Positions 915-30,566 of a DNA stretch of 31,189 nt are shown piece after piece (positions within the stretch are counted from its first letter, which is position 1; the number at the start of each line of letters is the position of its first letter). The notes under the pieces are model-generated. The model saw nothing but the letters and a program-made list of their open reading frames with translations, ran no database searches and was not told the DNA's origin. Position numbers and translations under genes: made by a program. Origin of the DNA: a virus; IMG/VR virus record IMGVR_UViG_3300034106_002336, positions 1 through 31,189 of that record; one strand, 5' to 3'.

Positions 915-3177
915 ACCCGAGGTGCGTCTCGGTCGCGTCGCGCGCGTCCGATTTCGTCCCGCGCCAATCCGGCGACGCCCAGCAGTGGCGCGAGGTCTGG
1001 TTGGCGCGCGATTTGCACATGCCGAGGTCTTGCCACCGCGCTTCAGCTAGCGCATGCTGCAGGGCCTGCAGGTTCAGCCTGATATGCGGGGGCGCCTGAT
1101 TCTGCAGGCGATCCACCAGCGGCTGCCACGGGCCACTGATGACGCCGAGGCGGAATTCCTCGATGCGCTTCTCGATGCGGTCCACCAGCCACGATTCCGC
1201 TCCGCTGCGGCTGGTGGCGACCATGATCTGTTTCGCCTCGGTCCACGGCGGCGTGGCCCCGGGCGCGAAACGCGACACATCCCGCTGCCGCAAATACAGC
1301 GCCCCGGCTTGCAGTCCGCCCGCGGCGAACCAGCCCCACAGGCGCGTGGATTCCTCCTCGGTCATTCTGGGCGCATCTGTCCACAAAACATACCATCGTC
1401 GGTCATCTGACGGTATCGCTATTGCATCGCGGTAGTTCGAAAACGCCAGCACCAGCGCTTGATTCCGCACCTGTATCGGATGCGCAAATTTCCGCTGCAC
1501 CGATAGCAGTTCCGGCGGCGCTGCGAGAATCGGTTTCAGGCGGTTTTCCAGCGCCCTGCGGTCCACAGCCTCGCTCTGCCGCAGTTCGTTAAAAATAATC
1601 AACTCGTTCTCTAGATAGTATCCCCATTGATCCTGTAATTCTGCGGTTTCGACTGAGGCGCAATTGGTTTTGTTTTCGCCGCCGATGGCGTAAAGCAGGG
1701 GCGCGATCATGCTGTCTTTCCCCGCGCCAGGCACGCCGCCGATCAGGATCGCGTGGTTGATCTTGACCCCGGGGCGCTGCACTTTGAAAGCGAAGGCATC
1801 GAGCATGTGGTTTCGCTCTGCAGGATCAGGGATCAGTCTCTCAACGTGATCCAGCCACGGCTGCGGGTCGATGCTGCTGGTAATCACGGGCCTGCCGTCG
1901 CGCCACTTGTTACCGAAAGCCTGCCCCTGATGCTCGCACAGCGTTGACGCCCCAGGCGCGTAGGTCGCGCCGGCCAGGACGCGGGCGCCCATTGCAGCGC
2001 GGTTTTCGTCGAAGCTGACGGAGGCTTCGATCTTGCGCGCCGCGCCGCTGGTGCTGGCGTGGATTGAATGGCACCTGACCGAGCGATACAGGGCGTTGAA
2101 CGCTGAGCGGCTTACCTCGGTGCGCTCCACCAGATCGAAGAAGCCATCGTCGGGCATCATATAAGCCCAGCGCGCGTACCATTCTGCCGGTTCCAGCGTG
2201 CTGACGTCCCGCGCCGCCACCGCCTGCTCTGCCGGCGTTGGCTCTGCGGGCTCCGGTGCCGGCGGCCCGTACAGCGCTGCCCGTGGCGCAATCCAGGCCC
2301 GAGCGTCGGACCATCGGGTCCACCCGCTGTCGGCGCAATCCCATGCGTCAGGCTGGCCTGTGGGGTCGATGATCTTGACCTCGCTGGCGATAGGCGCCAG
2401 GATGGCCGCCAGGCGCTGCATAGCCTCGATGCCGGCCTGATCCGCGTCGGGCCACAGGAGGATTTTCCGGCCCCGTAGCGTCTGCCAGTTCGCGCGGCCC
2501 AGCGCCTGCGCGCCCCCGGGCCAGGTGCATGAGACGTAAGGCGAGCCCGTCAGCCCTGCCGCTGCGTCGGCGGCTTTCTCGCCCTCGACCACCAGCACCG
2601 GATCCTCGGGGCGGGCCTCCAGTTCCTGCAGGCGGTACAGCGGTCGCGGGACGGGCCACTGGCCCATGCCCCAGCCGTCGGTACTGAACGTCCAGGGGAC
2701 GATCTGCTTGCGCTCCCCGGGCGGGTCGTAGCGGGCGACGTAGCCCAGAACGTCGCCGTTGCCGTCGTAGTACGTCCATATCTGCGACGGGTCGCCGAAT
2801 ATGGGATGCCTGCAGTCGCAGTCCGCAGCCTCACTGGGGACCGGCGTGATAACCTGCCGCTGCGGTTTCGCTGGGCGCTGCGGCCTCGCTGGCGCTGCTG
2901 GCGTGCCGTCCAGTTGGCGATACGCTTCGCCCAGATCAATCTCATGGATAGCCGCATACAGGTCGATCAGATCGCCTCCCTTGTCGCCAGCGGCGAAGTC
3001 GGCCCAGCGTCCGCTGAGCAGGTTGACGGAGCAGGAGTCGCCCTCACCGCCGGCCAGATCGCCGCACATCCACTCGTGGCCCCGGCGTTTGCCGCCAGGA
3101 AGCCACTGGGGGACCAGCGTGTCGGCGCTGATGAGCAGGCGCTGCGCGAGCGCTGAGAAATCGAGTTTCGTTGTCAT
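883..3177 (-). CDS. Toprim primase / SF3-like helicase fusion (replication protein)
   Basis: About 764 residues. The N-terminus (roughly 1-90, including GRWADFAAGDKGGDLIDLY) resembles the CHC2-like head of phage primases but lacks a full zinc-cysteine set. A Toprim domain follows, with VLVVEGEKAAD near 194-204 and PDADQAG near 243-249 supplying the acidic metal-binding residues. A P-loop ATPase follows: Walker A GGVPGAGKDS near 480-489, Walker B LIIFNEL near 526-532, a sensor-like LAFSNY near 578 and an arginine-rich DDRRW near 591. This arrangement fits a phage primase-helicase that primes and unwinds DNA at the fork. I chose ATG 3177 because it overlaps the methyltransferase stop as ATGA; an in-frame GTG lies 12 bases upstream. 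It is the last gene of the - strand early operon. The C-terminal 150 residues are unassigned. Confidence 0.93.
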   Translation of the reverse strand: MTTKLDFSALAQRLLISADTLVPQWLPGGKRRGHEWMCGDLAGGEGDSCSVNLLSGRWADFAAGDKGGDLIDLYAAIHEIDLGEAYRQLDGTPAAPARPQRPAKPQRQVITPVPSEAADCDCRHPIFGDPSQIWTYYDGNGDVLGYVARYDPPGERKQIVPWTFSTDGWGMGQWPVPRPLYRLQELEARPEDPVLVVEGEKAADAAAGLTGSPYVSCTWPGGAQALGRANWQTLRGRKILLWPDADQAGIEAMQRLAAILAPIASEVKIIDPTGQPDAWDCADSGWTRWSDARAWIAPRAALYGPPAPEPAEPTPAEQAVAARDVSTLEPAEWYARWAYMMPDDGFFDLVERTEVSRSAFNALYRSVRCHSIHASTSGAARKIEASVSFDENRAAMGARVLAGATYAPGASTLCEHQGQAFGNKWRDGRPVITSSIDPQPWLDHVERLIPDPAERNHMLDAFAFKVQRPGVKINHAILIGGVPGAGKDSMIAPLLYAIGGENKTNCASVETAELQDQWGYYLENELIIFNELRQSEAVDRRALENRLKPILAAPPELLSVQRKFAHPIQVRNQALVLAFSNYRDAIAIPSDDRRWYVLWTDAPRMTEEESTRLWGWFAAGGLQAGALYLRQRDVSRFAPGATPPWTEAKQIMVATSRSGAESWLVDRIEKRIEEFRLGVISGPWQPLVDRLQNQAPPHIRLNLQALQHALAEARWQDLGMCKSRANQTSRHCWASPDWRGTKSDARDATETHLGSMPTPMRRVV

Positions 3178-3770
3178 TCGTTGCCCCACTGGTCGGCCAT
3201 CGCTGCGGCGATGCCGCTATATGTTGTGCTGCGGATCTTCCAACGATCCGGCGACGGCGAAAGTCTGTTCTGGCCTCTGTCGGTCTGGTTGCCCCAGCGC
3301 TTCCGTCCGTTGACGATGCGTGGCTCTACGATCTGCGTCGGCCGCAATGGCGGCAAATTCTGCAACCACAGGCAGGTTTTCTTCGACGCATCGTGCCCGA
3401 ACATCCACGGCTGGATGATCTGCTCAGGCTTGCGAATCCATGTGCTAATCATGCTGACCGGGTTCTCAACGGCAATGCGCCGAATCGGTGCATCCATCAG
3501 TATGTGTACGAACGTCAGCGCATCGTGAGTCAGTTGCTCATCACGCAACCCGCGCCGCATCCAGTGCATGCCACTGACACTCAGGTACGTGCAGGGCGGG
3601 TGCGCGATCATCAGATCCCAGCTGTCGCGCAATATCTCTTGCACATCGCCTTGATAGTGCGGCCCCGGCGCATCTGTCGGCAGCAAATCACACGACATCG
3701 CATCGTGCCCGCGCTCACGGAACGCATCGCGCACGGTGCCGCTGTATTCGCAGGCTACGAGTACTTTCAT
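3174..3770 (-). CDS. minimal DNA cytosine methyltransferase (Dcm-like)
   Basis: 198 residues. The start MKVLVACEYSGTVRDAF is the glycine-containing S-adenosylmethionine motif I, and SCDLLP nearby is the acidic motif II. HPPCTYLSVSG near 57-67 is motif IV with the catalytic Pro-Cys, and AVENP near 99-103 corresponds to motif VI, where classical enzymes read ENV. The C-terminal STTYSGIAAAMADQWG matches the last conserved block. At under 200 residues it lacks a large target-recognition domain, as is usual for this phage family. It probably methylates phage DNA against host restriction. It is coupled by ATGA to both neighbours. Confidence 0.82.
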   Translation of the reverse strand: MKVLVACEYSGTVRDAFRERGHDAMSCDLLPTDAPGPHYQGDVQEILRDSWDLMIAHPPCTYLSVSGMHWMRRGLRDEQLTHDALTFVHILMDAPIRRIAVENPVSMISTWIRKPEQIIQPWMFGHDASKKTCLWLQNLPPLRPTQIVEPRIVNGRKRWGNQTDRGQNRLSPSPDRWKIRSTTYSGIAAAMADQWGNE

Positions 3771-5814: not shown

Positions 5815-6003
5815 ATGACCACCATCCACATCCACCAGATCGTCAGCGTGCGCGCCGACCGTCGCATCAGCGCTGAGGGCTACACCTGGCGGCACATCGT
5901 CCTGACGGACGCTGACGGCCGAGAGACGAAGATCGCGTTGTTTCCTGCCAGCGAGGGCAAGCCCGAGCAGATCAGCATCATTGACGAGGAGCGGACGGAA
6001 TGA
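5815..6003 (+). CDS. small hypothetical protein
   Basis: 62 residues from ATG 5815, preceded by GGGAG in the end of the upstream gene. The sequence alternates beta-prone segments (TIHIHQIVSVRADRR, then YTWRHIVLTDADGRETKIAL) and resembles the short beta-strand phage proteins that handle DNA or metal, but I do not recognise it. It overlaps the YqaJ exonuclease start by four bases (ATGA), which suggests co-regulation with the recombination genes. Confidence 0.75.
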   Translation: MTTIHIHQIVSVRADRRISAEGYTWRHIVLTDADGRETKIALFPASEGKPEQISIIDEERTE

Positions 6004-6635
6004 TCCTCGAAACCGCAGACCAGCGCACTGCCGACTGGTACGCCGCCCGCATCGGCAAAGCCACGGCGTCCCGGTTCAAGGACGCCATTGCTGCGCTGAA
6101 ATCCGGCGCCCCGGCGCAGGCCCAGCGCGACTACGCCACCGAACTGGTCGTCGAGCGCCTGACGCAGCAGCCGGCGCAGCGCTACGCCACCGCCGCGATG
6201 CAGTGGGGCACCGAGCAGGAACCCGCAGCGCGCGCAGCCTACGAGCGCGTCACCGGCACCAGCGTCGAGGAAACCGGCTTCGTCGCGCACGACACGCTGC
6301 TGGCGGGCTGCAGCCCGGATGGCTTGGTGGACTGGGACGGGCTGATCGAGATCAAGTGCCCGTTCAACAGCGCCGTGCATATCGAAACGCTGCTTAACGG
6401 CATGCCGTCAGAGCACGCCGCGCAGGTGCAGGGACAGATGTGGATCACTGGCCGCCAGTGGTGCGATTTTGTTTCCTTCGATCCCCGGATGCCCGTTGAA
6501 CTGCAGTTGCACATTCAGCGGATCAACCGTGACCCTGGCTTCATTGCCGACCTGGAAGCCAAGGTTACGTCTTTCCTGCAGCAGGTCGGCACCCAAGTCG
6601 AGGCGCTGCGGCGTCTCGCGGAAAGCAAGAAATGA
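6000..6635 (+). CDS. YqaJ-like viral recombinase exonuclease
   Basis: 211 residues. The lambda-exonuclease fold motifs appear in order: WYAARIGKATASRF at about 13-26, GTEQEPAARAAYE at about 70-82, SPDGLVD at about 105-111 with the metal Asp, and GLIEIKCP at about 114-121 with the Glu-x-Lys pair. The family degrades one strand of a double-stranded end 5' to 3', leaving a 3' overhang for an annealing protein. The RecT-like gene 600 bases downstream is the natural partner. GAGGAG upstream supports the start, and four-base overlaps join it to both neighbours. Length fits the family. Confidence 0.92.
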   Translation: MILETADQRTADWYAARIGKATASRFKDAIAALKSGAPAQAQRDYATELVVERLTQQPAQRYATAAMQWGTEQEPAARAAYERVTGTSVEETGFVAHDTLLAGCSPDGLVDWDGLIEIKCPFNSAVHIETLLNGMPSEHAAQVQGQMWITGRQWCDFVSFDPRMPVELQLHIQRINRDPGFIADLEAKVTSFLQQVGTQVEALRRLAESKK

Positions 6636-6883
6636 GCGATACCAAGAAGCGCACCTATGTGCGCACCCTGAAGGCCTGGGCCGTAATGGACGCGGAGGGC
6701 AACGAGCGACTGGTGCGGGCCTACACCGCAGCAGACGTGCTGCGCCACGTCACGCCGCAGTTCGTGATCGCGCCCGCCACGCACGACGACATCATCACGC
6801 TGATGGCTTCCGGCGTCATGGTGGAGACCGTGGGCCTGCCCGAGGCGATTCCCGCCGACGAACCCGCCGGCCTGACTGACTGA
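6632..6883 (+). CDS. hypothetical protein between exonuclease and annealing protein
   Basis: 83 residues, starting MSDTKKRTYVRTLKAWAVMD. Segments ERLVRAYTAADVLRHVTPQF and APATHDDIITLMASGVMVE are predicted alpha/beta. No family is recognised. Its position inside the exonuclease-recombinase cluster suggests an accessory role in the same process, by analogy with lambda-type red operons where a third small protein sits nearby; that is inference. It is coupled upstream by ATGA, and a terminator-like hairpin follows its stop. Confidence 0.75.
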   Translation: MSDTKKRTYVRTLKAWAVMDAEGNERLVRAYTAADVLRHVTPQFVIAPATHDDIITLMASGVMVETVGLPEAIPADEPAGLTD

Positions 6884-6889
6884 ACCCAC

Positions 6890-6912
6890 GGGGCGGGAAA
6901 CCGCCCCATTTT
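6890..6912 (+). terminator. GC-rich hairpin with GAAA loop and short T run
   Basis: GGGGCGG (6890-6896) pairs with CCGCCCC (6901-6907) across a stable GAAA tetraloop, and ATTTT follows. Four T residues make this a weak or partial terminator, lying right before GGAG of the next gene. It may trim transcription past the exonuclease gene or stabilise its RNA end. Confidence 0.5.
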
Positions 6913-6923
6913 GGAGAGCGCCA

Positions 6924-7214
6924 ATGTCAAACGCATACGCGCCGGTGTTCATGGCTGAAGCCTATGATTTGCTGGTTAAAAGCCTGAAGGATCAACTTGT
7001 TGAGGAGAGAAACGAAGAGTGCAAAAAATCAGATATAGAAATGTCCAAACGAGTTGAGATAGAGGAGTTAATTTTTGAATTTGTTTTAAGGCACTGCGGC
7101 CGCGCCAAGCTAATTGAGCTTGGCGAGCAAATTGATGAAATGCTTGAAAAGGAATACGGCCGCAGCCAAGGTTATAAAGAGCATGTTGAAACCGTTCAAC
7201 TACCACAGGAGTAA
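6924..7214 (+). CDS. A+T-rich hypothetical protein
   Basis: 96 residues, from ATG 6924 with GGAG seven to nine bases upstream. The product is highly charged and helical: SLKDQLVEERNEECKKSD, then VEIEELIFEFVLRHC, then LIELGEQIDEMLEKEY, compatible with a coiled coil. Codon use is distinctly A+T-rich compared with the exonuclease and RecT genes on each side, which suggests recent horizontal insertion between the two partners. No family is recognised. The hairpin in front and the RecT Shine-Dalgarno behind leave it as a self-contained cassette. Confidence 0.7.
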   Translation: MSNAYAPVFMAEAYDLLVKSLKDQLVEERNEECKKSDIEMSKRVEIEELIFEFVLRHCGRAKLIELGEQIDEMLEKEYGRSQGYKEHVETVQLPQE

Positions 7215-7219
7215 CACCC

Positions 7220-7996
7220 GTGACCGCACTCGCAACCGTAGACCAGATCGAACGCATGGCCGTCAGCGTGGCCCGCAGCGGCCTGTTCGGAGTCAAGACG
7301 CCCGACCAAGCAATGGCCCTGATGCTGATCGCACAGGCTGAGGGCCTGCACCCCGCCATCGCCGCGCGTGACTACCATGTCATCAACGGCCGCCCCGCCC
7401 TGCGTGCAGACGCCATGCTGGCACGCTTCCAAGCCGCAGGCGGCAAGGTGGAGTGGGGCGAGTACACCGACACCAAGGTCGTCGGCAAATTCTCGCACCC
7501 GTCTGGCGGCAGCGTGGAGATCGCGTGGACCGTCAAGATGGCGCAGGACGCCGGCCTGACACGCAACCCGACATGGAAGTCCTACCCCCGCCAGATGCTG
7601 CGCTCGCGCTGCATCTCTGAGGGCATCCGCACCGTGTTTCCGGGCGTTTTGGTCGGAACCTACACGCCCGAGGAAGTCGGCGACATGGAGCCCCGCGAAC
7701 CCGTCCGCATGCGCGACATGGGCACTGTGGACGAGGTCGCACCGCCCGCACCGCCCGCACCGCCTGAGCCCCCAGAGGGCCTGATTGACGTTGACGAATT
7801 GCTGGAGTCAATTGAGCTCGCCAGCACGCTGGAGGGCCTCGAACTGCTGCGTGCGGACATGCGCCGCGTCCCGAAGGGCCTTGACCGCGACCGCATCATC
7901 TCTGCGGCCAAGCGCCGCGCCGACCAGATCCGCTCCGAGCAGGAACCGCCTGCCGGCGACCCGCAAATCGTCCAGGCCGAGGAGGGCACCGTATGA
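7220..7996 (+). CDS. RecT-like single-strand annealing protein
   Basis: 258 residues from GTG 7220, with AGGAG eight bases upstream. The core spans about 1-160: AMALMLIAQAEGLHPAIAAR, YHVINGRPALRADAMLARF, and the signature KSYPRQMLRSRCISEGIRTV with EEVGD after it, which fits the RecT family. The middle contains a proline-rich linker (about 174-185), and the tail is helical and charged. Such proteins bind single-stranded ends made by the exonuclease and anneal them to homologous DNA. It pairs functionally with the YqaJ gene and overlaps the next gene by four bases. Confidence 0.88.
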   Translation: MTALATVDQIERMAVSVARSGLFGVKTPDQAMALMLIAQAEGLHPAIAARDYHVINGRPALRADAMLARFQAAGGKVEWGEYTDTKVVGKFSHPSGGSVEIAWTVKMAQDAGLTRNPTWKSYPRQMLRSRCISEGIRTVFPGVLVGTYTPEEVGDMEPREPVRMRDMGTVDEVAPPAPPAPPEPPEGLIDVDELLESIELASTLEGLELLRADMRRVPKGLDRDRIISAAKRRADQIRSEQEPPAGDPQIVQAEEGTV

Positions 7997-20202: not shown

Positions 20203-21909
20203 TCAGGCGCTCGTCGGGGTGGCGGAGAGTTCCGCACCCATGATGGCAATCTTCACCGGATCACTGCCGCTGATCTCGTACACCCGATCCCGCAGCTTGG
20301 TGGTCATGCCCAGGCGCCGCCAGATGACGCGTTTGCCGTACTCGCCGAGCTTGCCCATGCTGGCCCAATGCTCGTTGCTCCAGGTGTGACCGCCGTCGTC
20401 GGACCAGCGGAGCATGACATTTGCCGGCGTGTTTGTGTTTGCGCTTGTTAGGTAAATAGAATATGTCAATGGGTCAGACAGCAATATTGTCTGAACTACA
20501 TTTTCAATGTAGTCAATATACGTTTGGTTTGTCAACACGCCCAAGCCGTAATTTTGAAATTGTAGCGAATCGCTTGCTTGAATTACTCCATTATTAGTTA
20601 CGTCGCCAAGTTTGCGCCCGCCAAATTCTTTATTCCATGTTGTTTTGAATGGCTCAAAATTTACAGACGCAGCAAGCACTTTTTCGGCAACCTGCGACCA
20701 ATTAACAACATTCTGAAACTCAAAAGACGTGCCAGACTCAATGTCTAGCTGAAGCATGTGATGCGCCGTTCGCTTCAGATTGTTCTGCCCCGTAGGCAAA
20801 GCGCGCCACGACCGAAGCCATCTTTGTTCTTCTGAGAAATCCCTGAAGAAGTTCATGTCAAGCGCATAGACGTTGCCGCTTTCCCAATCCCCCACCAGCA
20901 CCTGCCCAGCGTAGTTCGCTTGGCAGTTACTCCGGTGCCGCCGAAACTGCACCCCATCCCACGCCGCCCGCTCATGCCACGCCCCAGTGGAGACGTCAAA
21001 CACCCACGTTGCCTGAGCGGTCGGGAACGTCAGCACGTAGAACGAATGACCATCCTGCTGGTACGAGTAGCCGATGGCGTCGTTCAGCACGCCGTACTGC
21101 TGAATCTGCCACTCCACAGCGTGCGTGCTGACGCGCTGGGCGTTGTAGCCCTGATTGCGGTACACGATGCCGTTGCCGCGGGCGTCAGAGCCCAGCCAGA
21201 ACACGGCGTTGTCCAGCTTGGCCACGCTGTACGGCGCAAGGCATCCGGTTTCCATGAACGCGCCTTCGATGCGCGCCAGCGGAAAATCAGCCAAGCCTGC
21301 GTTGTACCAGACCTCAACGGTGTTGTTGCCAAACAGCCAGACCTCGCGGTGGTCTACCATTAGCGACACGATGTTGTCGGGGTTGCCCTCAGCGCTGGCA
21401 AAGTCCAATGGGTCAATGGCAGTGCCGTCAAGCAGCGAGGTCACCCACACGCGCTGGCTGTTGGGCTCGTTGAAGACGAAGTAGCTGTCCAGATAGCCGA
21501 CGCTCACAGCACCCGGAAAGTCAGGGTCCGTGATCTGCGCGAACACGCTCGTGTTGGCGTTGTAGATGAACGCGCTGGGATTGCAAGCCACGAACAACTG
21601 AATGCCGTTGTCGGCCATGCTCACCGGCCCGCTGCCGTTGATTAGGCCAAGCTCAGTGGCGGCAAAGTTCCCGTCTACGCGGTACAGCTTGCCGCCAGAG
21701 GCGACGTACAGGAAGTCGCCGAACTTCCACATCCCACGAATAGGGCCCTCGCCCACGGTCGCCACCAGACGAAGCCCCGGGCACCGCTGCAAAAACGCCG
21801 GTTCCTTGCCGCCCTCGGGCACAACCTCTGGAAACAGGTTGACCATGCGGTTCGCCGCAGCATTGACGCTGCGGGCGACGTAGGCTCCACCGAGGATAGG
21901 AGTCTTCAC
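20203..21909 (-). CDS. P22 gp10-like packaged-DNA stabilisation / tail hub protein
   Basis: 568 residues from GTG 21909, which overlaps the gp4-like stop as GTGA. The start KTPILGGAYVARSVNAAANR and MVNLFPEVVPEGGKEPAFLQ is characteristic of gp10-like proteins, followed by beta-propeller-like repeats (GYLDSYFVFNEPNSQRVWV, then NNTVEVWYNAGLADFPLARI, then GHSFYVLTFPTAQATWVFDV). It is longer than P22 gp10 (about 470 residues). It seals the portal, holds DNA in the capsid and forms the tail hub. Positions about 20440-20760 are A+T-rich against the rest. Confidence 0.88.
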   Translation of the reverse strand: MKTPILGGAYVARSVNAAANRMVNLFPEVVPEGGKEPAFLQRCPGLRLVATVGEGPIRGMWKFGDFLYVASGGKLYRVDGNFAATELGLINGSGPVSMADNGIQLFVACNPSAFIYNANTSVFAQITDPDFPGAVSVGYLDSYFVFNEPNSQRVWVTSLLDGTAIDPLDFASAEGNPDNIVSLMVDHREVWLFGNNTVEVWYNAGLADFPLARIEGAFMETGCLAPYSVAKLDNAVFWLGSDARGNGIVYRNQGYNAQRVSTHAVEWQIQQYGVLNDAIGYSYQQDGHSFYVLTFPTAQATWVFDVSTGAWHERAAWDGVQFRRHRSNCQANYAGQVLVGDWESGNVYALDMNFFRDFSEEQRWLRSWRALPTGQNNLKRTAHHMLQLDIESGTSFEFQNVVNWSQVAEKVLAASVNFEPFKTTWNKEFGGRKLGDVTNNGVIQASDSLQFQNYGLGVLTNQTYIDYIENVVQTILLSDPLTYSIYLTSANTNTPANVMLRWSDDGGHTWSNEHWASMGKLGEYGKRVIWRRLGMTTKLRDRVYEISGSDPVKIAIMGAELSATPTSA

Positions 21910-22622
21910 GGTGTGCCGGCGTAGATGTTGAACCGCTGCTGACGGCGGTTGATCAGGTTGTACGGCAGGCTCATGATGTCGTCAGCGAAGTTGATCCGCT
22001 TCAGATTGCGCTTGGACGCCATCGCAATGCGCTGCACCGTAAGCGGAGCCTCAACGCCGAATTCGGCTGCAATCTCGCAGGCCAAGTTGTACTTGAAGCA
22101 CCTCAGGTAGCCAGGCGGAAACGACAGCACCGTGTTCAGCGTGGCGGGCTGCGACAACTCCGACACCGAGACGAGGTGAAACTCCAGTTCCCGCGTGGGC
22201 ACCGGGTACACCGTCATGGTGATGTTTGGCATCGTCATGTTCACCCACATGCTCTGCGGGTAAGTCGACGTCACCGTCTTCAGCGCAATACCGTTGTACT
22301 GCTGCTGGTTGATGAACATCAGGCCGTAGCTGATGCCCGTCGTCGGATCGCGGAAGTAGCAGGAATCGTCCAGTTGCACCGGGCGATTGCCGACGAAGTT
22401 GCCGCTGGGGCCGAGCGTGCGCTCGTAGACGTTTGCCGGCCAGTTGAACACCTGGTCTTGCGTGGAGAACACCGACAGGCGTTCGATGCTCCACGAATCC
22501 AGCATCTGGTTCAACGCTGCCAGCGCGTCCTGCGCTGTTTCGGCCGATGGGGTTTCGCCCTCGGCCAGTTGGCCGATCAGCCGCAGCGCGGCATAGATTT
22601 GGTCACCGGCTGTCGTCGACAT
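21906..22622 (-). CDS. P22 gp4-like tail accessory factor
   Basis: 238 residues, starting TTAGDQIYAALRLIGQLAEG and ALAALNQMLDSWSIERLSVF, the helical core of gp4-type head-completion proteins. The C-terminal part (SFPPGYLRCFKYNLACEIAA, then EFGVEAPLTVQRIAMASKRN) is also typical. It assembles under the portal and forms the platform on which the tail hub docks. AAGGAG seven bases before ATG 22622 supports the start. It is longer than P22 gp4 (about 166 residues), with a central beta-rich insertion. Confidence 0.87.
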   Translation of the reverse strand: MSTTAGDQIYAALRLIGQLAEGETPSAETAQDALAALNQMLDSWSIERLSVFSTQDQVFNWPANVYERTLGPSGNFVGNRPVQLDDSCYFRDPTTGISYGLMFINQQQYNGIALKTVTSTYPQSMWVNMTMPNITMTVYPVPTRELEFHLVSVSELSQPATLNTVLSFPPGYLRCFKYNLACEIAAEFGVEAPLTVQRIAMASKRNLKRINFADDIMSLPYNLINRRQQRFNIYAGTP

Positions 22623-22809
22623 GCTCGGGCTCCTTGCGACGGCGCCTCCCGAGCATGTGGTTCATGGGGACAACGACGTCATCCCCGGGCTCGTCGGGCT
22701 CACCCGGAGTATACCGCTGCCAACCGTTTTGTTCGTCGTATTCTGCCTCGGCCTCCATCGTGGCGATTTTCTGGCCGTGGCGGGGATGCTCAAGGTAGAT
22801 CAGGGGCAC
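22603..22809 (-). CDS. small hypothetical protein upstream of gp4
   Basis: 68 residues from GTG 22809, with GGAGG six bases upstream; it overlaps the glycosyltransferase by ten bases and the gp4-like gene by twenty. The first half (PLIYLEHPRHGQKIATMEAE) is followed by an acidic, glycine-rich link (PGEPDEPGDDVVVPMNHML) and a basic end (GRRRRKEPEHVD). I do not recognise a named family with certainty. Confidence 0.65.
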   Translation of the reverse strand: MPLIYLEHPRHGQKIATMEAEAEYDEQNGWQRYTPGEPDEPGDDVVVPMNHMLGRRRRKEPEHVDDSR

Positions 22810-23480
22810 AGGTCGCCTCCAGGTTGCTGGCGCAGGTACATGTGGAAGTTGCCCGGGAACGACTTGTCCGCGCTGTGGTGGTCAAGCTGCAGGTCCGGCA
22901 CAAGCCAGGCATCGCCGCCGCATTCTTCCCAGCGCCGGCAGAAAGCGTAATCCTCGCCCCACCACACGCCCTTGTGCGCGCCGTGGTTGAACAGATCCAC
23001 GCTCATGCGGTATTTTTCGCCGTAGCACAGATCGGGGTAGGCGGTCATAAAACGGTCCACAGCGGCCGTTGTGACCTTGAGGAACCCTGCGGGCAGGAGT
23101 CGCGCTTTGATCGCGCCATCGGCCCGTACAACGGGTGTGCCGGCAGGCGTGCTGTGAATGGTGCCCATGTAGGACACCTCGTCAGCCTTGAACCGATAGG
23201 TGCCGCCGACGACGTCACCCGGGGTTTCAATGAGCGTAAGCAGATTGGCTGGCCGCCAAGACAGGTCGTGGTCGATAAAGACGATTACGTCTGCCTTGGC
23301 GTCCAGCGCTTTGCGCAGCATGGTTGCCCGTGCCGCGCTGATGTACGGGTTGCCCACCTCGTTGACCATACCCTCGTCCCAACCCGCGGATTTGATGAGG
23401 GGGATGGACGCCTCCAGACTGTCTAGGCACTGCTGGTACGGGCGTTTGATGGTCGGAACGCAGAAGACAACCTTGGGCAT
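22800..23480 (-). CDS. GT-A-fold glycosyltransferase-like protein
   Basis: 226 residues. The start VVFCVPTIKRPYQQCLDSL is a GT2-like nucleotide-binding strand, and VIVFIDHDLSW near 66-75 holds a DHD motif in the place of the metal-binding DxD. GVWWGEDYAFCRRWEECGGD near 171-190 includes GED, the likely acidic base, and DLQLDHH follows. These features suggest a sugar transferase acting in the cytoplasm on a nucleotide sugar. Its position between head-fibre-like and neck genes is unusual and suggests that a virion protein is the target. It could instead modify host surface sugar, but no membrane segment is visible. Confidence 0.82.
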   Translation of the reverse strand: MPKVVFCVPTIKRPYQQCLDSLEASIPLIKSAGWDEGMVNEVGNPYISAARATMLRKALDAKADVIVFIDHDLSWRPANLLTLIETPGDVVGGTYRFKADEVSYMGTIHSTPAGTPVVRADGAIKARLLPAGFLKVTTAAVDRFMTAYPDLCYGEKYRMSVDLFNHGAHKGVWWGEDYAFCRRWEECGGDAWLVPDLQLDHHSADKSFPGNFHMYLRQQPGGDLCP

Positions 23481-23494
23481 GGGTCAGTGCCGGC

Positions 23495-23794
23495 TTACGC
23501 CGCGCCCTTCCACAGGCCCAGCCCGGTCAGGGTCGCCGCCACTTCGGCGAAGAACGCCGCTTGGTTGCTGGCCACGCTGGCCCAGGTGCTGGCCGACACA
23601 ACGGACGCGGCTTGGATGGCCGCGGCGCGCTGAGCAGCCGGCGTGGCGCCGTAGAAGCCCAGCGTGCCGGTGGCAACGTTCTGGACGCGGACGGGTTGGC
23701 CGGCGCGCCCGACCAACAGGACTTCGGCGGTGTTGCCGTCGCCGACCTGTTCGCCGTCACCGATCTTCGGAGCTTCGAAAGTTTGAGCAGACAT
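23495..23794 (-). CDS. head-fibre-like protein, paralog 2
   Basis: 99 residues from ATG 23794, with AAAGGA seven bases upstream. GDGEQVGDGNTAEVLLVGRA is followed by TGTLGFYGATPAAQRAAAI and the end TLTGLGLWKGAA. The FYGATPxxQRAAA and GLWKGAA blocks match the next gene and short phage head-fibre or decoration proteins. The N-terminal 45 residues differ from its paralog and are predicted beta. It probably sits on the capsid surface. Confidence 0.75.
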   Translation of the reverse strand: MSAQTFEAPKIGDGEQVGDGNTAEVLLVGRAGQPVRVQNVATGTLGFYGATPAAQRAAAIQAASVVSASTWASVASNQAAFFAEVAATLTGLGLWKGAA

Positions 23795-23812: not shown

Positions 23813-24070
23813 TTACGCGGCACCCTTCCACAGGCCAAGGCCGGTGAGAGTGGCATTCACCTCAGCGGCCCACGCCGCAAGGTTGCTGCCGACGGTGATG
23901 TACGACGAGGCGCTGACGACCGAAGCCGCCTGCACCGCTGCCGCACGCTGAGTGATGGGCGTCGCGCCGTAGAACGCGATCTTGCCACCGGCACTGGGGA
24001 GTGCCCCCAGTGCGCAGTCGTCAAGATCCTGGTCCGTGAACGCTACACCAATGGGCTTGGTGAAGGACAT
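23813..24070 (-). CDS. head-fibre-like protein, paralog 1
   Basis: 85 residues from ATG 24070, six bases after the coat stop. The start MSFTKPIGVAFTDQDLDDCA is followed by GGKIAFYGATPITQRAAAV and the end ATLTGLGLWKGAA. The C-terminal half is highly similar to the next gene, so the pair arose by duplication, with replacement of the N-terminal part. Position next to the coat supports a capsid-decoration or head-fibre role. Confidence 0.75.
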   Translation of the reverse strand: MSFTKPIGVAFTDQDLDDCALGALPSAGGKIAFYGATPITQRAAAVQAASVVSASSYITVGSNLAAWAAEVNATLTGLGLWKGAA

Positions 24071-24075
24071 GTGGA

Positions 24076-25278
24076 TCACCCCCAGAGACGGACAGCCATC
24101 TGCGGCCGGATCACGCTGTAGCCGTACAGCACATCGATACGACACGGCATGCGGTCGTTGTTGATGTCGTACTGGCGCACGATCCGCATGCTGATCCCGT
24201 TGTGGACCTTGCGCGAGGCCATGTCCACGCCGTTGGGCAGCAGCAGGTCCGCCGTGGCGAACGTGATGGCGTCCTTGTGATAGATCAGGTTCTGCGGGTA
24301 CTGCGTCGAAGCAGAGCCAAGGAACGTGATGGTGTCGCCAGCCGTCGGGAACGAGTCCACCGTTGCAAGCGCTTGACCCGACGTGTAGATCGCCGGGCTC
24401 ACGCTGACGGTGTACGCGCCAGCCACCGCAGTGGCATCCGCCGTCGCCACGAACTGCTGCAGAGCGCCAGTGGACTCGCGGGTCTGCGGATTCACGGCGT
24501 AGCGGCCGTTGATGGTGAAGACGTCGCCCTTCTTGATGGTCTGCGTGCCGGTGCCCGTGATGGCAATCGTCGTCGCCCCTTGGGTCGAAACGGTCGTCGT
24601 CACGGTGTGGGCGCCGGTGCGCGTGCCCGTGGTGTGCTGCTTGATGGACTGCGACATGTTGATCTCGTCGTAGCCCAGCACACCCTCGCCCATCATGCCG
24701 TTCTTGAACTGGCGGGAGATGGTCGAGGTCGGGTTGAACAGGCCCTTCATGCCTTCCACCAAACCGGCGTTCGCAGCGGGGTTCACCGTCGCGTAGCGCG
24801 GCGACATCAGCGCGGCCGACTCATTCAGCTTCTGCTGGCCCTGCAGCAGCACGAGGCTGGTAGCAGGCGTCGTGCCGGGGGTGCCGACCGACTGGAAGAT
24901 GCTCTGGAACGAGTTGGCGACGTCGGCGTCGATGCTGGCCGCAAGCTGCGACACGCGCGGCTTGAGGATACGGTCAGCGAAGTCGTCCAACGACAGAGCC
25001 ATTTCGGCGGACGTGAAGTTCACGCCGATGTGCTTCTGCGAGGCGACGGTCAGCGTGGTGTACTGCTCGTTGACCTCTTGGACGCCCAGCGCGGCGCCGT
25101 TGGTGACCAGTGCGCGATCCGGCAGGCGGATACGCAGCGTGTCGCCCATTTTGGCGCCTTCGACGGCGAACGAGCTGTCGTACTGGCGGTTGATGTTGCG
25201 GGTGATGACAAGATTGTTCTCGAGGATTTCCAAAGCCTTGAGAGTGATCATGTCAATCGTAAGGAGCGACTGAGCCAT
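24076..25278 (-). CDS. P22 gp5-like major capsid (coat) protein
   Basis: 400 residues from ATG 25278, chosen over a TTG six bases upstream. MAQSLLTIDMITLKALEILE and NNLVITRNINRQYDSSFAVE, then AKMGDTLRIRLPDRALVTNG, are the N-terminal helix and E-loop region of P22-type coats. TLTVASQKHIGVNFTSAEMA and FADRILKPRVSQLAASIDAD follow. A beta-rich insertion at about 220-320 (VFTINGRYAVNPQTRESTGA) fits the P22-type I-domain position. It has the HK97 fold by family and is slightly shorter than P22 gp5 (430). AAAGG precedes the start. Confidence 0.92.
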   Translation of the reverse strand: MAQSLLTIDMITLKALEILENNLVITRNINRQYDSSFAVEGAKMGDTLRIRLPDRALVTNGAALGVQEVNEQYTTLTVASQKHIGVNFTSAEMALSLDDFADRILKPRVSQLAASIDADVANSFQSIFQSVGTPGTTPATSLVLLQGQQKLNESAALMSPRYATVNPAANAGLVEGMKGLFNPTSTISRQFKNGMMGEGVLGYDEINMSQSIKQHTTGTRTGAHTVTTTVSTQGATTIAITGTGTQTIKKGDVFTINGRYAVNPQTRESTGALQQFVATADATAVAGAYTVSVSPAIYTSGQALATVDSFPTAGDTITFLGSASTQYPQNLIYHKDAITFATADLLLPNGVDMASRKVHNGISMRIVRQYDINNDRMPCRIDVLYGYSVIRPQMAVRLWG

Positions 25279-25338
25279 TTTCAACCTTTCGGTATTTGTG
25301 TTACGATCATGATTCCATAGCCACCTAGGAGTCGCACC

Positions 25339-25968
25339 ATGTCAAGCATACTTGTAGACGGCATCGAGTACCGAGCCGTGAACCACCTGTACGCTGTCTC
25401 TCGATGCGGAAAAGCCTTGCGGAACGGACACCCGTACCTGCCCGTCGTTGGTGTTGACGGTTACCCCACCTTGGGCAGAGAAACGCGCCTTCACCGAGCT
25501 GTAGCTATGTGTTGGCTTGAGAGTTTTGCCCCCAAAAAGCACATTCACCACATCAACGGAAACAAGTTGGACAACCGCGTTGAAAACCTTGAGTGCTTGA
25601 CGGCTCAAGAGCATCACGGCAGTAGGCACTTTGAACTGCATTCCGTCTCTGGACGATACGTTAGAACCGAGGCCACCAAAGAAAAACTTCGGCAGGCCAG
25701 GCTCGGAAGCGTCACGCCCGAGGAAACGAAGGCAAAACAACGTGCCGCACTGCTGGGGCGCACACGACCCTACTTCCCGCGAGCGGGGCATAGCGAGGAA
25801 TCCAAGGCTAAAAGAAGCCTTGAACACCCGCGCAACACTGCCTGCAAGGTGTTTGGTGTCATGTACCGCTCCTTTGCAGAAGCGGCTAAAGCCACTGGCA
25901 TTCATCGGTTTACGCTGCGGAAGCGATGCCTTTCAGACAACTTTCCTGACTACGAACTTCACGGTTAA
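25339..25968 (+). CDS. free-standing HNH homing endonuclease
   Basis: 209 residues on the + strand, against the direction of every neighbour. ATG 25339 has AGGAG eight bases upstream. HNH motif: LHRAVAMCWLESF near 51-63, HIHHINGNKLDNRVENLECL near 68-87 with the HH and two Asn of the active site. NUMOD3-like basic repeats follow at about 113-122, 128-140 and 151-160 (KEKLRQARLG, HSEESKAKRS), then a NUMOD1/IENR-like helix-turn-helix near 169-199 (GVMYRSFAEAAKATGIHRFT). Such proteins cut intron-less alleles to spread their own gene. It lies exactly between scaffold and coat, overlapping the scaffold stop by four bases. Its own promoter is presumably in 25279-25338. Confidence 0.9.
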   Translation: MSSILVDGIEYRAVNHLYAVSRCGKALRNGHPYLPVVGVDGYPTLGRETRLHRAVAMCWLESFAPKKHIHHINGNKLDNRVENLECLTAQEHHGSRHFELHSVSGRYVRTEATKEKLRQARLGSVTPEETKAKQRAALLGRTRPYFPRAGHSEESKAKRSLEHPRNTACKVFGVMYRSFAEAAKATGIHRFTLRKRCLSDNFPDYELHG

Positions 25969-27138: not shown

Positions 27139-28731
27139 TTATGCGTAGATGACTTCAGAGGTTTGCACAGTGGCAACCCATCGAATATCAGTTGCCGCTG
27201 CGCCGGTTGCGGTCACGGCAAGACCTCCGTTTGTTGTGTCTGCCGACAATGCAAGGGTCCACCCAGGGACGTTGCTGATTGCAGTGACGGTAGACGCCAC
27301 AAGCGTTGTACTGCCAGCAGTTCCTTCCCTGCGAATCAAACCTTCGATTTTCCACGCAGCAGAGGCTGTGCCGTCTGCGGCTTGCTGACGGGCGACAACG
27401 GTTCCTGTGAAAGCGTAGGCGCTGCTGTTGGAGAGAATAACTTGGTTTGACGTTCCGGCAACGCCCGTGTCAGATGTAAGAACCGTTGCAGTGTTATCTG
27501 TTGTTTGTTTGCACAACAACAAAATACCCATTTGAGAACTGCCTGCGGAGGCAGAACCCCATCCGGCAAAAGCATATTTTTTTATTTGTGAGGCAATCGC
27601 ACTATCCCCAAAAGCTATTGCATCAGTTCCGCTGGCGTTTGCGCCAAAACCAATGGCTGAGCCACAGCCAATTGCGACACTTCCAGTACCGCTTGCGTTT
27701 GATAAATTTCCCAACGCTAAACTTCTTGTGCCGCCAGCAGAATTTTGCCTGCCAATCGCTACGGACGCAGAGCCGGTTGCCTTAGAAATGCTTCCTATAG
27801 CAAGTGCGTTTGCATTTTGTGATCCATAAGTAACCGTATTGTTTGCAATAGCCGCCGCAAGGCTGTCGACGCCGGAGGCGTAGGAGCCGCCGAGAGCCAT
27901 AGCTCCTTGCCCTGTAGTTGCGACAGCCATGTCGCCTGCTGAGTTTCTTCCAATTTGTGTTCCCAGCACGCCAATAGATGCTGTTCCGGCAGTTCTATTG
28001 TCTCCTGTAAGCCAATTAGTACCAGTGCAGACAAGTCTTACGCCCGTACCTTGCGTAAGTTTAAATTCAGTAGTTGGATCAACGCCATCTACCGTTTCTG
28101 TCCCATTTGGATCAATAGTAATGACGCCTGTACCAGTATTCCAAATCCAGCAATTAAAGCCAGCGCCTAATGTAGCCGCTGGATCAAGCGACACAGTAAA
28201 CGTGTTTGCGGTGCAATTGATGATCTTCCCGAGATCACCAGACACCACGGTGTAGGCGGCGGTCTTGTTGTCGATGGTGATCGCTCCACCCCCACCCCCA
28301 CCAGAAGCGGCAATAGTGATTGAACCGGGGCCATTGGTGATCGTAATGTTTGACCCAGCCGTCAGCGTAGCTTTTGCCAGCGTACCGCCCGTGGTGTTGC
28401 CAATCAACAGTTGACCGTCGGTGTAGCTGGTTTGTCCAGTGCCCCCATTAGCAACGGGAAGTGTGCCAGTCACGCCCGTGGAAAGCGGCAGGCCGGTGCA
28501 GTTTGTCAGCGTTCCGCTGGATGGAGTTCCAAGAACGGGCGTGGTAAACGTCGGGCTGACCGACAACACCATGTCTCCGGTGCCTGTAACGGCGTTATTC
28601 AGCGTCACGCCGCCATAAATCAGCGCCCCCGTCATTGCAACCGCACGCGGGAACGTGTAGGTGTCTCCAGCGCCTGGAGCACGAAGCTGCGGCGTTGCGG
28701 TGTCAAGAGCGATGACTTCAAATGCGGCCAT
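27139..28731 (-). CDS. tail fibre protein with YadA-like repeats
   Basis: 530 residues from ATG 28731, with GAGGT nine bases upstream. The N-terminal part carries the phage fibre block [20 protein letters not shown] followed by [15 protein letters not shown] poly-glycine link (GGGGGG, near 143-150) comes next, then a beta domain ([40 protein letters not shown]). Then come YadA-like units ([40 protein letters not shown]). The C-terminal 150 residues are a likely receptor or chaperone-like region. Bases about 27480-28240 are richer in A+T than the ends, showing mosaic origin. Confidence 0.8.
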
Positions 28732-28739
28732 GATTTACC

Positions 28740-30566
28740 TCAGACGGTGTACGATGTTCCGTTGCTTGACAGAACAGTGTTTGTCACGGTGTAAGAGTTA
28801 CCAGAACTGTTTAAAACGGTTAGCAACACACTATACGCCGTGCCCCCACTGTTTTGGACAGAAATTGTTGACTGCGTTGTAAGCTGCACTCCGGTTTTGC
28901 CCGCAACCCACGACTCTGTTGCGCTGATCTGCGAATCTGTGGACTGTGCGCCCCGGATGATGAGGGATGACAGCCAGCCTTGAAAGTACAGGCTTGCGTT
29001 GTTGCGTGCGCCAATAAACAGCGGGTAGTTGCCGTAGTTGCCGGCTCCTTGGTCGGCAGTGCCATTTGTGCCGCTTGCTGCGCCATTTATTCTTAGTGCA
29101 GACAAATCTCCAGCAATATTTCCAGTTGCAGTTGTTATCAAAGTTACTGGAGATGCAAAGCCGGCAGAAATAGCAATCTGACCAATCGCAGCGGCAGCAT
29201 TTCCGCGAGAAGTAAACGCCAGATTTGCAGCGGCAGACACGCCGTCGTAGCTTGGAGAAAAAAAGAAAGAACCTGCGTTGCTGTTAAAATTGGCGCTCAA
29301 TTCCGCCAATATTGGCGCAGCATCACTCAACTTCCGAACCCCCGCAAACACCGTCATCTTGTCGGTAGCGGTGAAGTCAATGCTGCCCGTGGACATCGAA
29401 TCGTCCACCCCGTCAAACGCAAGGTAGGGCAGGAAGCCCACGGTGTCGTAGTCTGTCGCTGCGGCAACGCGCTGGTAGGTGGGGCCGATCAGGCCCGTGG
29501 CTTGGCTGGTGGGGCGGAGGTCTGCGCCCCAGACTAGAACGTCTGCCGTTTCGTCGTTTCCAGGGATTGAGTCAAAAAGAAGAATTTGCCCACCTATTGA
29601 TGTGGCAGTTGCAGTTGTGGAAACAGTGAATCTTTGCCAATCGCCGGTCACTACACAGTTGATGCCTGTTAATTCAACACGCAACCCAACATTTGACGTT
29701 CCGCCAGAAAACGTTTTCATCCACACAGAAAACGTGTAATTCAGTCCTATTGCTGAAAGAACAGACTGTTGGATTCTAGAAAACGTACCGCCAGTTTTGT
29801 TGAAAACAATTCTGTCTGCGGTTTGCGTGCCATTTGGCGCAAGACCAGCATTAGCAGTAACAACCGGATTAGTGGCACCGCCGTTGTCAAGCGCCCACAC
29901 CGCATTATCAAACTGCTCCGAATACGTCAGCAAGTTATACCGCGCCGCCAGCTTCGGGCGTTTTGTGCCGGTGGAGGTGACGTGGTTGCCGGGGAGTTCG
30001 CGGACGGAGACTTTGGATACCGTAGCGGCAACACCAGCAGGGGCGCGAAAAATCAAATACGCTTGTGACGCGGATTGACGATAGGTGTAGGTACCGTTAC
30101 CCAGCGATGGCCCAACAGTTCCTTCTCCCGCAAATACTTGTACTGTGCCGCCCGTCACGCCGGAAAGCGTAAATTGCGTGACGTAAAACTTTCCAATTGT
30201 ATATTGCGGTGTTTGACTAAGATCTCGGCTGGCAACTTGAGAACCGTCAATCGTAAATACGCCGCCTCCAGCGTTGGTCCACGGCGAGTTGATTGTCCCA
30301 AACCCAGACCACAACTCCGCCCCAAGCGTCGTAGGCGCACCCTTGCTCTTGTCCAGCATCAGCCCAACAAACTGCTCCACCCCCGTCACAGGCGTGGTGC
30401 CTACGCTGTCGGTGAATAGCGTGCTGAAATCGCTGGGGTCGTACCATGCTCCCTGCTCGCCGGCAGAGAACAGATCGCGTGGATCAAACGGAGCAATGCC
30501 AAACCCGGCTTGCGAACCAAGCCCGATGGGCAGGCCGTTGCGGATGGGTACGCCGAAATAAGGCAT
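28740..30566 (-). CDS. tail protein with carbohydrate-binding and LamG-like domains
   Basis: 608 residues from ATG 30566. The start (PYFGVPIRNGLPIGLGSQAG and DLFSAGEQGAWYDPSDFSTL) is a virion-attachment part seen in phage tail proteins. A first sandwich with PTTLGAELWSGFGTINSPWT follows. NLLTYSEQFDNAVWALDNGG near 212-231 starts a second carbohydrate-binding-like sandwich. The last 250 residues resemble a LamG/concanavalin-like fold (YLAFDGVDDSMSTGSIDFTA, then AGVRKLSDAAPILAELSANF). The very end is a short tandem beta repeat (TVLNSSGNSYTV, TVLSSNGTSYTV). Role: surface-sugar recognition; a lyase or esterase motif is not evident. Confidence 0.78.
   Translation of the reverse strand: MPYFGVPIRNGLPIGLGSQAGFGIAPFDPRDLFSAGEQGAWYDPSDFSTLFTDSVGTTPVTGVEQFVGLMLDKSKGAPTTLGAELWSGFGTINSPWTNAGGGVFTIDGSQVASRDLSQTPQYTIGKFYVTQFTLSGVTGGTVQVFAGEGTVGPSLGNGTYTYRQSASQAYLIFRAPAGVAATVSKVSVRELPGNHVTSTGTKRPKLAARYNLLTYSEQFDNAVWALDNGGATNPVVTANAGLAPNGTQTADRIVFNKTGGTFSRIQQSVLSAIGLNYTFSVWMKTFSGGTSNVGLRVELTGINCVVTGDWQRFTVSTTATATSIGGQILLFDSIPGNDETADVLVWGADLRPTSQATGLIGPTYQRVAAATDYDTVGFLPYLAFDGVDDSMSTGSIDFTATDKMTVFAGVRKLSDAAPILAELSANFNSNAGSFFFSPSYDGVSAAANLAFTSRGNAAAAIGQIAISAGFASPVTLITTATGNIAGDLSALRINGAASGTNGTADQGAGNYGNYPLFIGARNNASLYFQGWLSSLIIRGAQSTDSQISATESWVAGKTGVQLTTQSTISVQNSGGTAYSVLLTVLNSSGNSYTVTNTVLSSNGTSYTV

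What the first reader, a model, noticed from the sequence alone, without database searches (positions are those of the whole stretch)
22800..23480. Glycosyltransferase within the head and neck genes
A GT-A-like enzyme lies between two head-fibre-like proteins and the gp4-like tail factor. Placement in the structural operon suggests that it adds sugar to virion proteins such as the surface fibres encoded next to it, which is rarely shown in phages.
Basis: inference. Interest (0 to 1): 0.5.

Follow-up and report, generated by a model that had tools for sequence, protein, structure and literature searches.

The report
Phage head-fibre glycosylation cassette
A phage carries an intact-looking sugar-adding enzyme that is inherited together with the tip domain of small proteins encoded next to its shell protein, which suggests that the phage puts sugars on its own surface; no sugar has been shown yet.

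Summary
In detail: 22800-23480(-) encodes a 226-aa GT-A glycosyltransferase between a P22-like coat with two small proteins (hf1, hf2) and gp4. The AlphaFold model (pLDDT 95.7) is closest to STIV A197, and catalytic Asp70, Asp72, Asp177 and His201 are conserved in 62 aligned sequences. The hf proteins have an N-terminal part shared with GT-less relatives and a C-terminal domain (FYGxTPxxQR...LGLWKG) found only beside the GT. In 66 complete coat-anchored loci, 64 lacked both, 2 had both, none had one alone; 109 further complete loci lacked both. GT and hf tip stay similar (median 59% and 52%) where coats have diverged to 38%. Between sister phages, homology stops at the start of hf2 and resumes at the end of the GT. 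A methyltransferase often sits between hf and GT, but comes and goes while hf and GT stay together. Best reading: a mobile cassette in which a head-fibre-like tip travels with the enzyme(s) that glycosylate, and often methylate, it. Not shown: any glycan, the donor sugar, or that hf is on the virion. Mere linkage and other targets remain possible.

The parts
22800..23480 (-). GT-A glycosyltransferase, 226 aa
   Evidence: ORF; phrog_1574 4.8e-14; AF2 pLDDT 95.7; STIV A197 Z 17.0
23265..23273 (-). DxD motif codons Asp70-His71-Asp72 of the GT
   Evidence: D70 and D72 invariant in 62 of 62
22950..22958 (-). xED motif Gly175-Glu176-Asp177 of the GT
   Evidence: D177 invariant in 62 of 62
22878..22880 (-). 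C-terminal His201 of the GT
   Evidence: 61 of 62, one gap
23495..23794 (-). hf2, 99 aa: N-terminal GDGEQVGDGN part plus GT-linked C-terminal domain; proposed acceptor
23813..24070 (-). hf1, 85 aa (start ATG at 24070): N-terminal TKPIGVAFTDQDL part plus GT-linked C-terminal domain; proposed acceptor
   Evidence: AF2 pLDDT 65, helix 39-77 only
23816..23974 (-). C-terminal tip domain of hf1
   Evidence: hfC profile 107.8 bits
23498..23656 (-). C-terminal tip domain of hf2
   Evidence: hfC profile 101.0 bits
24076..25284 (-). P22-like major coat protein (context)
   Evidence: Pfam PF11651 2.2e-38
22603..22809 (-). p68, 68 aa; a similar gene is present in GT-less relatives, so not a cassette member
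21906..22622 (-). gp4-like tail accessory/adaptor protein (context)
   Evidence: phrog_12985 7.1e-47; P22_Tail-4 weak 0.11
20203..21909 (-). head closure Hc3 / gp10-like stabilisation protein (context)
   Evidence: phrog_578 2.8e-134

Best explanation
The GT is the enzyme of a small mobile virion-glycosylation cassette. During late gene expression it transfers a sugar from a host nucleotide-sugar pool (metal- and DxD-dependent) onto the C-terminal tip domain of the one or two small proteins encoded immediately upstream (hf1, hf2), which probably sit on the capsid surface by their N-terminal part. In many relatives a class I methyltransferase, more rarely a second GT, elaborates the sugar; the window's lineage keeps the GT alone. 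The cassette (tip domain plus enzymes) is swapped as a unit into different phages on top of a resident N-terminal part, giving the head a new glycan-bearing surface. Shown: gene order, GT-A fold by model and conserved catalytic residues, co-inheritance, swap boundaries. Inferred: catalysis, sugar, acceptor, virion location, benefit (shielding or adhesion).
For: Intact GT-A enzyme under purifying selection. Best solved match is STIV A197, a viral GT proposed to glycosylate the coat (PMC10551542 passages); next are protein glycosyltransferases LH3 and COLGALT1, and PBCV-1's capsid GT 2p6w is also listed. Coat-anchored sample: 66 complete loci, 64 GT-/tip-, 2 GT+/tip+, 0 discordant; 109 of 109 further complete loci GT-/tip- by the downstream test (contigs overlap in part). 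N-terminal parts persist without the GT: 100 of 109 and 61 of 64. Of 199 loci with the strict tip domain (some are the same contig fetched twice) 195 hold the GT; 3 of the other 4 end within about 100 bases of hf or MTase and the fourth is a distant hf copy. MTase-anchored scan: all 50 new contigs also show GT and hf hits. Identity of GT follows hf (r 0.69; partial 0.65 given coat, 0 of 1000 permutations) more than coat (r 0.33; partial 0.17). In 4 of 4 sister comparisons homology runs through the coat, touches only a short stretch at the hf2 start, and resumes at the GT end or in p68. MTase changes state 8 times on the GT tree while hf stays, so the linkage is not simply of everything in the block.
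Against: No glycan, donor or virion location is measured. Co-inheritance may be only physical linkage: crossovers in the hf2 start and in p68 would move everything between them. Tree-based independent pairs are too few: 5 supported pairs, hf going the same way in 4.5-4.7, the other way in 0, p 0.0625. Ser+Thr content of the tip is the same beside the GT and without it (0.23 vs 0.23), so there is no compositional sign of an acceptor. The tip domain is not uniform: 18 of 162 GT+ loci fail the strict profile and mostly carry Thr-type or other tips. Four GT loci lack an hf neighbour: L097, L098, L247, L348. The hf1 model is poor (pLDDT 65).
Confidence: 0.6

Rival explanations
1. The GT glycosylates another virion protein (coat, head spike or tail protein) and the hf tip is only a linked partner, for example one that needs a glycosylated shell.
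For: The GT lies in the head operon; mycobacteriophage glycans are reported on capsid and tail tube subunits (cited in PMC12619734). The window also has a head-spike-like protein, 28740-30566 (NCBIfam GTA_spike_fiber 1.1e-19).
Against: Coat varies to a median 38% identity in far pairs while GT stays at 59% and hf tip at 52%; near-identical coats (97.3%) occur with and without the GT.
Confidence: 0.13
2. The GT modifies the host cell surface (for example to stop superinfection or virion re-adsorption), and travels with the hf tip because the tip binds that surface.
For: Phage GTs that change host serotype are known (stated in PMC12619734); distant homologues in Paraburkholderia/Caballeronia genomes lie outside P22-like head operons, one beside a second GT.
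Against: No recognised flippase or membrane partner next to it; the model is a compact 226-aa GT-A domain (no transmembrane predictor was run); position inside the head operon, and between two hf genes in L226-L235.
Confidence: 0.13
3. Pure hitchhiking: the GT acts on something unrelated to hf (phage DNA, a small molecule), and recombination at conserved flanks moves the block as one.
For: Virus GTs that hypermodify DNA exist (Pyle 2024, seen only as a reference in PMC12619734). Swap flanks are conserved sequences.
Against: No hydroxymethylase-type gene in the 33 window ORFs scanned, though the window is a fragment. MTase is gained and lost at least 5 times (8 by parsimony) inside the block without loss of hf-GT pairing.
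Confidence: 0.1
4. The protein is a catalytically dead GT fold used as a structural or decoration protein.
For: It lies in a structural operon.
Against: DxD, xED Asp and C-terminal His are conserved in essentially all of 62 sequences, down to 24-29% identity.
Confidence: 0.04

Closest known systems
STIV A197 (Sulfolobus turreted icosahedral virus glycosyltransferase, PDB 2c0n)
   Same: Viral stand-alone GT-A domain, closest solved fold (Z 17.0, rmsd 2.4 over 163 residues, 17% identity); the virus has a glycosylated coat and A197 is reported essential (PMC10551542 passages)
   Different: Archaeal non-tailed virus; no hf or methyltransferase partner known to me (recalled); 17% identity
Mycobacteriophage virion glycosylation (Che8, Rita and relatives)
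   Same: Phage GTs linked to covalent glycans on virion proteins (as cited in PMC12619734 and PMC11256854)
   Different: There the GTs lie near the genome's 3' end (PMC11256854, for Maravista) and the acceptors are capsid and tail tube subunits; here the GT is tied to a small coat-adjacent protein and swapped with it. A structural match to Ardmore gp87 is weak (3.6e-5)
PBCV-1 capsid glycosyltransferase (PDB 2p6w)
   Same: Viral GT-A enzyme annotated as glycosylating the capsid; Foldseek E 6e-4
   Different: Giant algal virus; weak match
Collagen hydroxylysine glycosyltransferases LH3 and COLGALT1
   Same: Protein-modifying GT-A domains; best Foldseek hits, VIA Z 14-16
   Different: 12-14% identity; multidomain; act on hydroxylysine. 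No hydroxylase found among the window ORFs scanned
PHROG family phrog_1574
   Same: The window GT and the relatives L002 and L003 match it
   Different: The family has no assigned function

Membership tests
GT-A fold glycosyltransferase | GT-A fold | tested here: met
   AF2 pLDDT 95.7; VIA Z 12-17 to many GT-A enzymes
GT-A fold glycosyltransferase | DxD, xED Asp and C-terminal His | tested here: met
   D70, D72, D177 62 of 62; H201 61 of 62 with one gap; motif names recalled
Pfam Glycos_transf_2 (PF00535) | score above the gathering cutoff | tested here: not met
   17.9 vs 23.3 bits; relative L002 21.6
phrog_1574 | significant profile match over most of the length | tested here: met
   4.8e-14, residues 2-203, profile 13-230 of 240
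Virion-glycosylating phage system (mycobacteriophage type) | glycan on virion proteins | not testable with these tools
   needs mass spectrometry
Virion-glycosylating phage system (mycobacteriophage type) | phage-encoded GT genes | tested here: met
   GT inside the phage head operon
STIV A197-like viral GT | same fold as A197 | tested here: met
   Z 17.0, rmsd 2.4, 163 residues aligned of a 191-residue chain
STIV A197-like viral GT | transfers sugar to the coat protein | not testable with these tools
   only proposed for A197 too in the passages read
Serotype-converting gtr cluster | adjacent flippase/bactoprenol GT genes | tested here: not met
   Recognised neighbours in window and P22-like-coat relatives are coat, hf, MTase, p68, gp4, Hc3
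DNA-hypermodification GT system | companion pyrimidine hydroxymethylation genes | tested here: inconclusive
   None in 33 window ORFs scanned, but the window is a fragment
Head fibre / capsid decoration (for hf1, hf2) | match to a known head-fibre or decoration family | tested here: inconclusive
   No family, PDB profile or confident model; inferred from position and modular N-terminus
Class I SAM methyltransferase (relatives' cassette gene) | Pfam Methyltransf_11/23 above cutoff | tested here: met
   L002 and L045 proteins, 34-38 bits; absent from the window

The most novel reading that the evidence does not exclude
Tailed phages carry a mobile head-surface glycosylation cassette in which the acceptor tip domain and its private GT, with an exchangeable second enzyme (methyltransferase or further GTs), move as one unit between phages and are grafted onto a resident capsid-binding N-terminus: a plug-in system for changing the glycan coat of the head.
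Probability: 0.5. Interest if true: 0.75.

Novelty: new variant of a known kind. Interest (0 to 1): 0.6.

Why it matters
Virion glycosylation in phages has few demonstrated cases and, as far as I know, none with a defined enzyme-acceptor gene pair (recalled; the searches showed none in their listings). This gives a concrete pair, an 85-99-aa candidate acceptor and a 226-aa enzyme, natural GT-less sister phages with about 97% identical coat as controls, and a relative in a cultured Rhizobium genome. It makes directly testable whether phages glycosylate head fibres and what a methylated or elaborated sugar does for adsorption, diffusion or shielding.

Tried and rejected
Rejected: a methyltransferase-GT fusion in L141/L237 (one contig). 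The ORF joins the front of the MTase to the GT's C-terminal part without the DxD, so it is a deletion or misassembly and was not counted as a fusion. The GT-methyltransferase-like fusion of L003 and relatives stands, with weak Pfam support for the second domain (E 0.0035-0.11).

Rejected: Ser/Thr enrichment as a sign of the acceptor (0.23 both). Rejected: p68 as a cassette member (a similar gene is in GT-less L240). Rejected: using the hf1 model for fold searches (pLDDT 65). hf1 queried against 50,697 phage records found nothing, and the L002 hf and L002 MTase found only their own record. The phmmer list for a second GT mostly hit frames overlapping other genes and was not used. The MTase profile gave one weak unlikely PDB hit.

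Rows dropped: one search kept 275 of 306 loci with a near-full coat (tail factor in range, or GT and tip both seen, which favours GT+/tip+); searches used 109 of 133 and 66 of 80 loci, the rest ending before gp4/Hc3. The search for related loci returned at most the best 80: of 203, 173 and 163 relatives and of 599 or more. Counts over all loci include some contigs fetched by more than one scan. In one search the 7 'GT-, motif+' loci include L375, a chance match; of the 5 'GT+, motif-' loci, 4 match the strict tip profile and L091 matches the hf profile. The patterns for the N-terminal parts were written by me after seeing the sequences.

Full report
OBSERVATION. The ORF at 22800-23480 on the minus strand is real and encodes 226 aa. 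It follows the P22-like coat (24076-25284; Pfam 2.2e-38) and two small proteins, hf1 and hf2, and precedes a 68-aa gene, gp4 and Hc3. Family libraries are weak on it: Pfam Glycos_transf_2 below cutoff (17.9 vs 23.3 bits), phrog_1574 of unknown function at 4.8e-14, NCBIfam nothing above cutoff. The AlphaFold model built on 59 sequences of the window and its relatives has pLDDT 95.7 and pTM 0.92. The closest of the solved chains aligned is STIV A197 (Z 17.0, rmsd 2.4, 163 residues), then LH3, Mnn9, Mimivirus R699 and COLGALT1. Foldseek alone ranks COLGALT1 first (7e-9, TM about 0.5) and lists PBCV-1's capsid GT at 6e-4. A shared fold does not show the substrate. D70, D72 and D177 are invariant in 62 of 62 aligned sequences and H201 in 61. 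dN/dS is 0.06-0.12 in the 3 of 8 pairs where dS could be computed. Promoter-like and terminator-like sites between 20200 and 25400 do not exceed chance.

NEIGHBOURHOOD. One scan of viral contigs found 203 relatives, 80 kept. The order is coat, one or two hf, often a 168-aa methyltransferase, GT, p68, gp4, Hc3. The methyltransferase was found in 31 of 83 loci examined, 10 others having under 600 bases upstream. It is a class I SAM methyltransferase (Pfam Methyltransf_11/23). A scan started from the methyltransferase gave 80 loci; the 50 not sharing sequence with the first scan all show GT and hf hits. A scan started from hf gave 79 loci; of 30 new ones 27 show the GT, and L109 and L158 end within about 100 bases. 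L159 is a far hf copy; its contig is cut just beyond the coat-side hf (my reading of the contig ranges). Other arrangements: hf-GT-hf-MTase (L226-L235), hf-GT-MTase (L192), GT fused to a methyltransferase-like domain (L003, L084 and relatives), three GTs in L091 and L095 and two in L167, and a canonical GT2 gene between hf and GT in L142 (Pfam 1.1e-8). The second enzyme slot is therefore exchangeable.

THE hf PROTEINS ARE MODULAR. Their N-termini come in several kinds, while the C-terminal domain is shared (FYGxTPxxQRAAAxQAASVVS...LGLWKGxA). GT-less relatives have the same N-termini with other C-termini: DSL-LC05 (L240) and MW202483 (L241). MW202520 (L244) and six of the coat-anchored GT-less loci carry a related but different FYG-type tip (QAAAITAVTNTATG...). 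Of unique tip segments, 74 of 83 from GT+ loci begin QR and 4 RR; 7 of 7 from GT- loci begin QA or QL. The sampling of tips is not random.

CO-INHERITANCE. The fairest sample is anchored on the coat. With the coat of L081 as query, 80 loci were found and 66 reach gp4 or Hc3: 64 lack GT and tip, 2 have both, none has one alone. With the coats of L240 and L241, 109 of 133 loci are complete and all lack both downstream of the coat. One of the 133 coat-anchored loci, L348, carries a distant GT homologue upstream of the scaffold-like gene. The N-terminal parts are present in 100 of 109 and 61 of 64 GT-less loci. Over the 275 usable loci of the scans up to the counts are 144 GT+/tip+, 113 GT-/tip-, 18 GT+ with a tip that fails the strict profile, and 0 tip without GT; those of the 18 that were read mostly carry Thr-type or other tips. 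Over all loci then held, 224 of 236 GT loci have an hf neighbour; 8 of the other 12 have the GT within 900 bases of the locus start, and 4 (L097, L098, L247, L348) lack one. On a coat tree of 83 rows the GT changes 8 times, 5 of them forced by well-supported branches. Of the 5 supported independent pairs the hf motif goes the same way in 4.5 on average and the other way in none, while the N-terminal parts differ in none. On a second tree of 90 rows the figures are 6 changes and 4.7 of 5. With 5 pairs the sign test cannot reach 0.05 (p 0.0625).

SWAP BOUNDARIES AND RATES. In four comparisons of GT+ with near GT- phages (L081/L381 with 97.3% identical coats, L064/L433, L046/L390, L072/L390) the DNA homology runs through the coat, touches only a short stretch at the start of hf2, and resumes at the end of the GT or in p68. 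Among 54 non-redundant GT+ loci, GT identity follows hf identity (r 0.69) more than coat identity (r 0.33); partial correlations are 0.65 and 0.17, 0 of 1000 permutations reaching the former. In the 1068 of 1431 pairs whose coats are under 45% identical, medians are GT 59%, hf 52%, coat 38%. In 17 genomes with two hf genes the two tips resemble each other more (0.81) than tips of different genomes (0.69; 0 of 5000 permutations). L061 holds a further hf 8 kb from its GT with the same tip. The methyltransferase is present beside 125 and absent beside 70 GT domains with enough upstream DNA, and changes 8 times on the GT tree (5 forced).

INTERPRETATION. The simplest account is a cassette of surface tip plus its own glycosylation enzyme(s), grafted onto a resident N-terminus. 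Catalysis, sugar, acceptor residue and virion location are inferred. The main caution is that linked genes travel together anyway: crossovers in the hf2 start and in p68 would give the same pattern without a functional bond. Against that stand the loss and gain of the methyltransferase inside the block and the persistence of the hf-GT pair across very different coats. The Ser/Thr content of the tip gives no support, and the hf1 model is too poor to use.

WIDER CONTEXT. In bacterial genome contigs 32 relatives were found. hf hits lie beside the GT in L453-L458 and L461; L477 has a weak hf hit, and L460 a coat but no hf hit. L456 (Rhizobium ecuadorense CNPSO 671) has portal, scaffold, coat, hf, GT and further structural genes. 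Most of the remaining relatives, 22-32% identical, in Caballeronia, Paraburkholderia and others have no P22-like coat hit nearby. A Paraburkholderia relative (L473) is next to another glycosyltransferase and has matches in 63 phage records, 43 of them Synechococcus phages. These distant homologues need not share the function.

KNOWN WORK. Virion glycosylation is known: mycobacteriophage glycans on capsid and tail tube (passages in PMC12619734 and PMC11256854 that cite Freeman 2023; the paper itself is not held), and STIV's coat with A197 as candidate enzyme (PMC10551542 passages). Eight literature searches showed no description of an hf-GT-methyltransferase cassette in their listings; only those three papers were opened, and only passages of them. 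I rate it a new variant of a known kind.

Noticed in passing
window 28740-30566 (-): 608-aa protein with a head spike fiber domain (NCBIfam NF048003 GTA_spike_fiber, E 1.1e-19, 71.7 bits vs cutoff 36), so the head may carry further surface structures.
   Followed up: partly
window 27139-28731 (-): 530-aa protein with YadA head repeats (Pfam 1.6e-12) and a tail fiber PHROG match (1e-16), between the head-spike-like gene and the scaffold gene.
   Followed up: no
window 25339-25968 (+): HNH endonuclease (HNH_3 1.1e-10) on the opposite strand between scaffold and coat; present in some close relatives (L004, L010, L011, L018) and not found in others such as L006.
   Followed up: partly
L142 4222-4761 (+): A second, canonical GT2 gene (Pfam 1.1e-8) between hf and GT, in the place of the methyltransferase.
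   Followed up: partly
L348 2307-2972 (+): Distant GT homologue upstream of scaffold-like gene and coat in a phage that lacks the downstream cassette.
   Followed up: partly
L141 / L237 1314-2237 (+): ORF joining the front of the methyltransferase to the GT's C-terminal part without DxD: deletion or misassembly.
   Followed up: yes
L061 2146-2421 (+): Extra hf gene 8 kb from the GT with the same C-terminal domain as the coat-side hf.
   Followed up: partly
L097, L098: Distant GTs right after a different kind of coat-like gene and a small possible decoration protein (naming of these neighbours is my reading of the sequence).
   Followed up: no
window 3174-3770 (-): DNA methyltransferase (phrog_757, 6.9e-67) in the early region.
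   Followed up: no
window 6000-7996 (+): YqaJ-like recombinase domain and RecT-type annealing protein genes, a recombination pair that could help module swapping.
   Followed up: no
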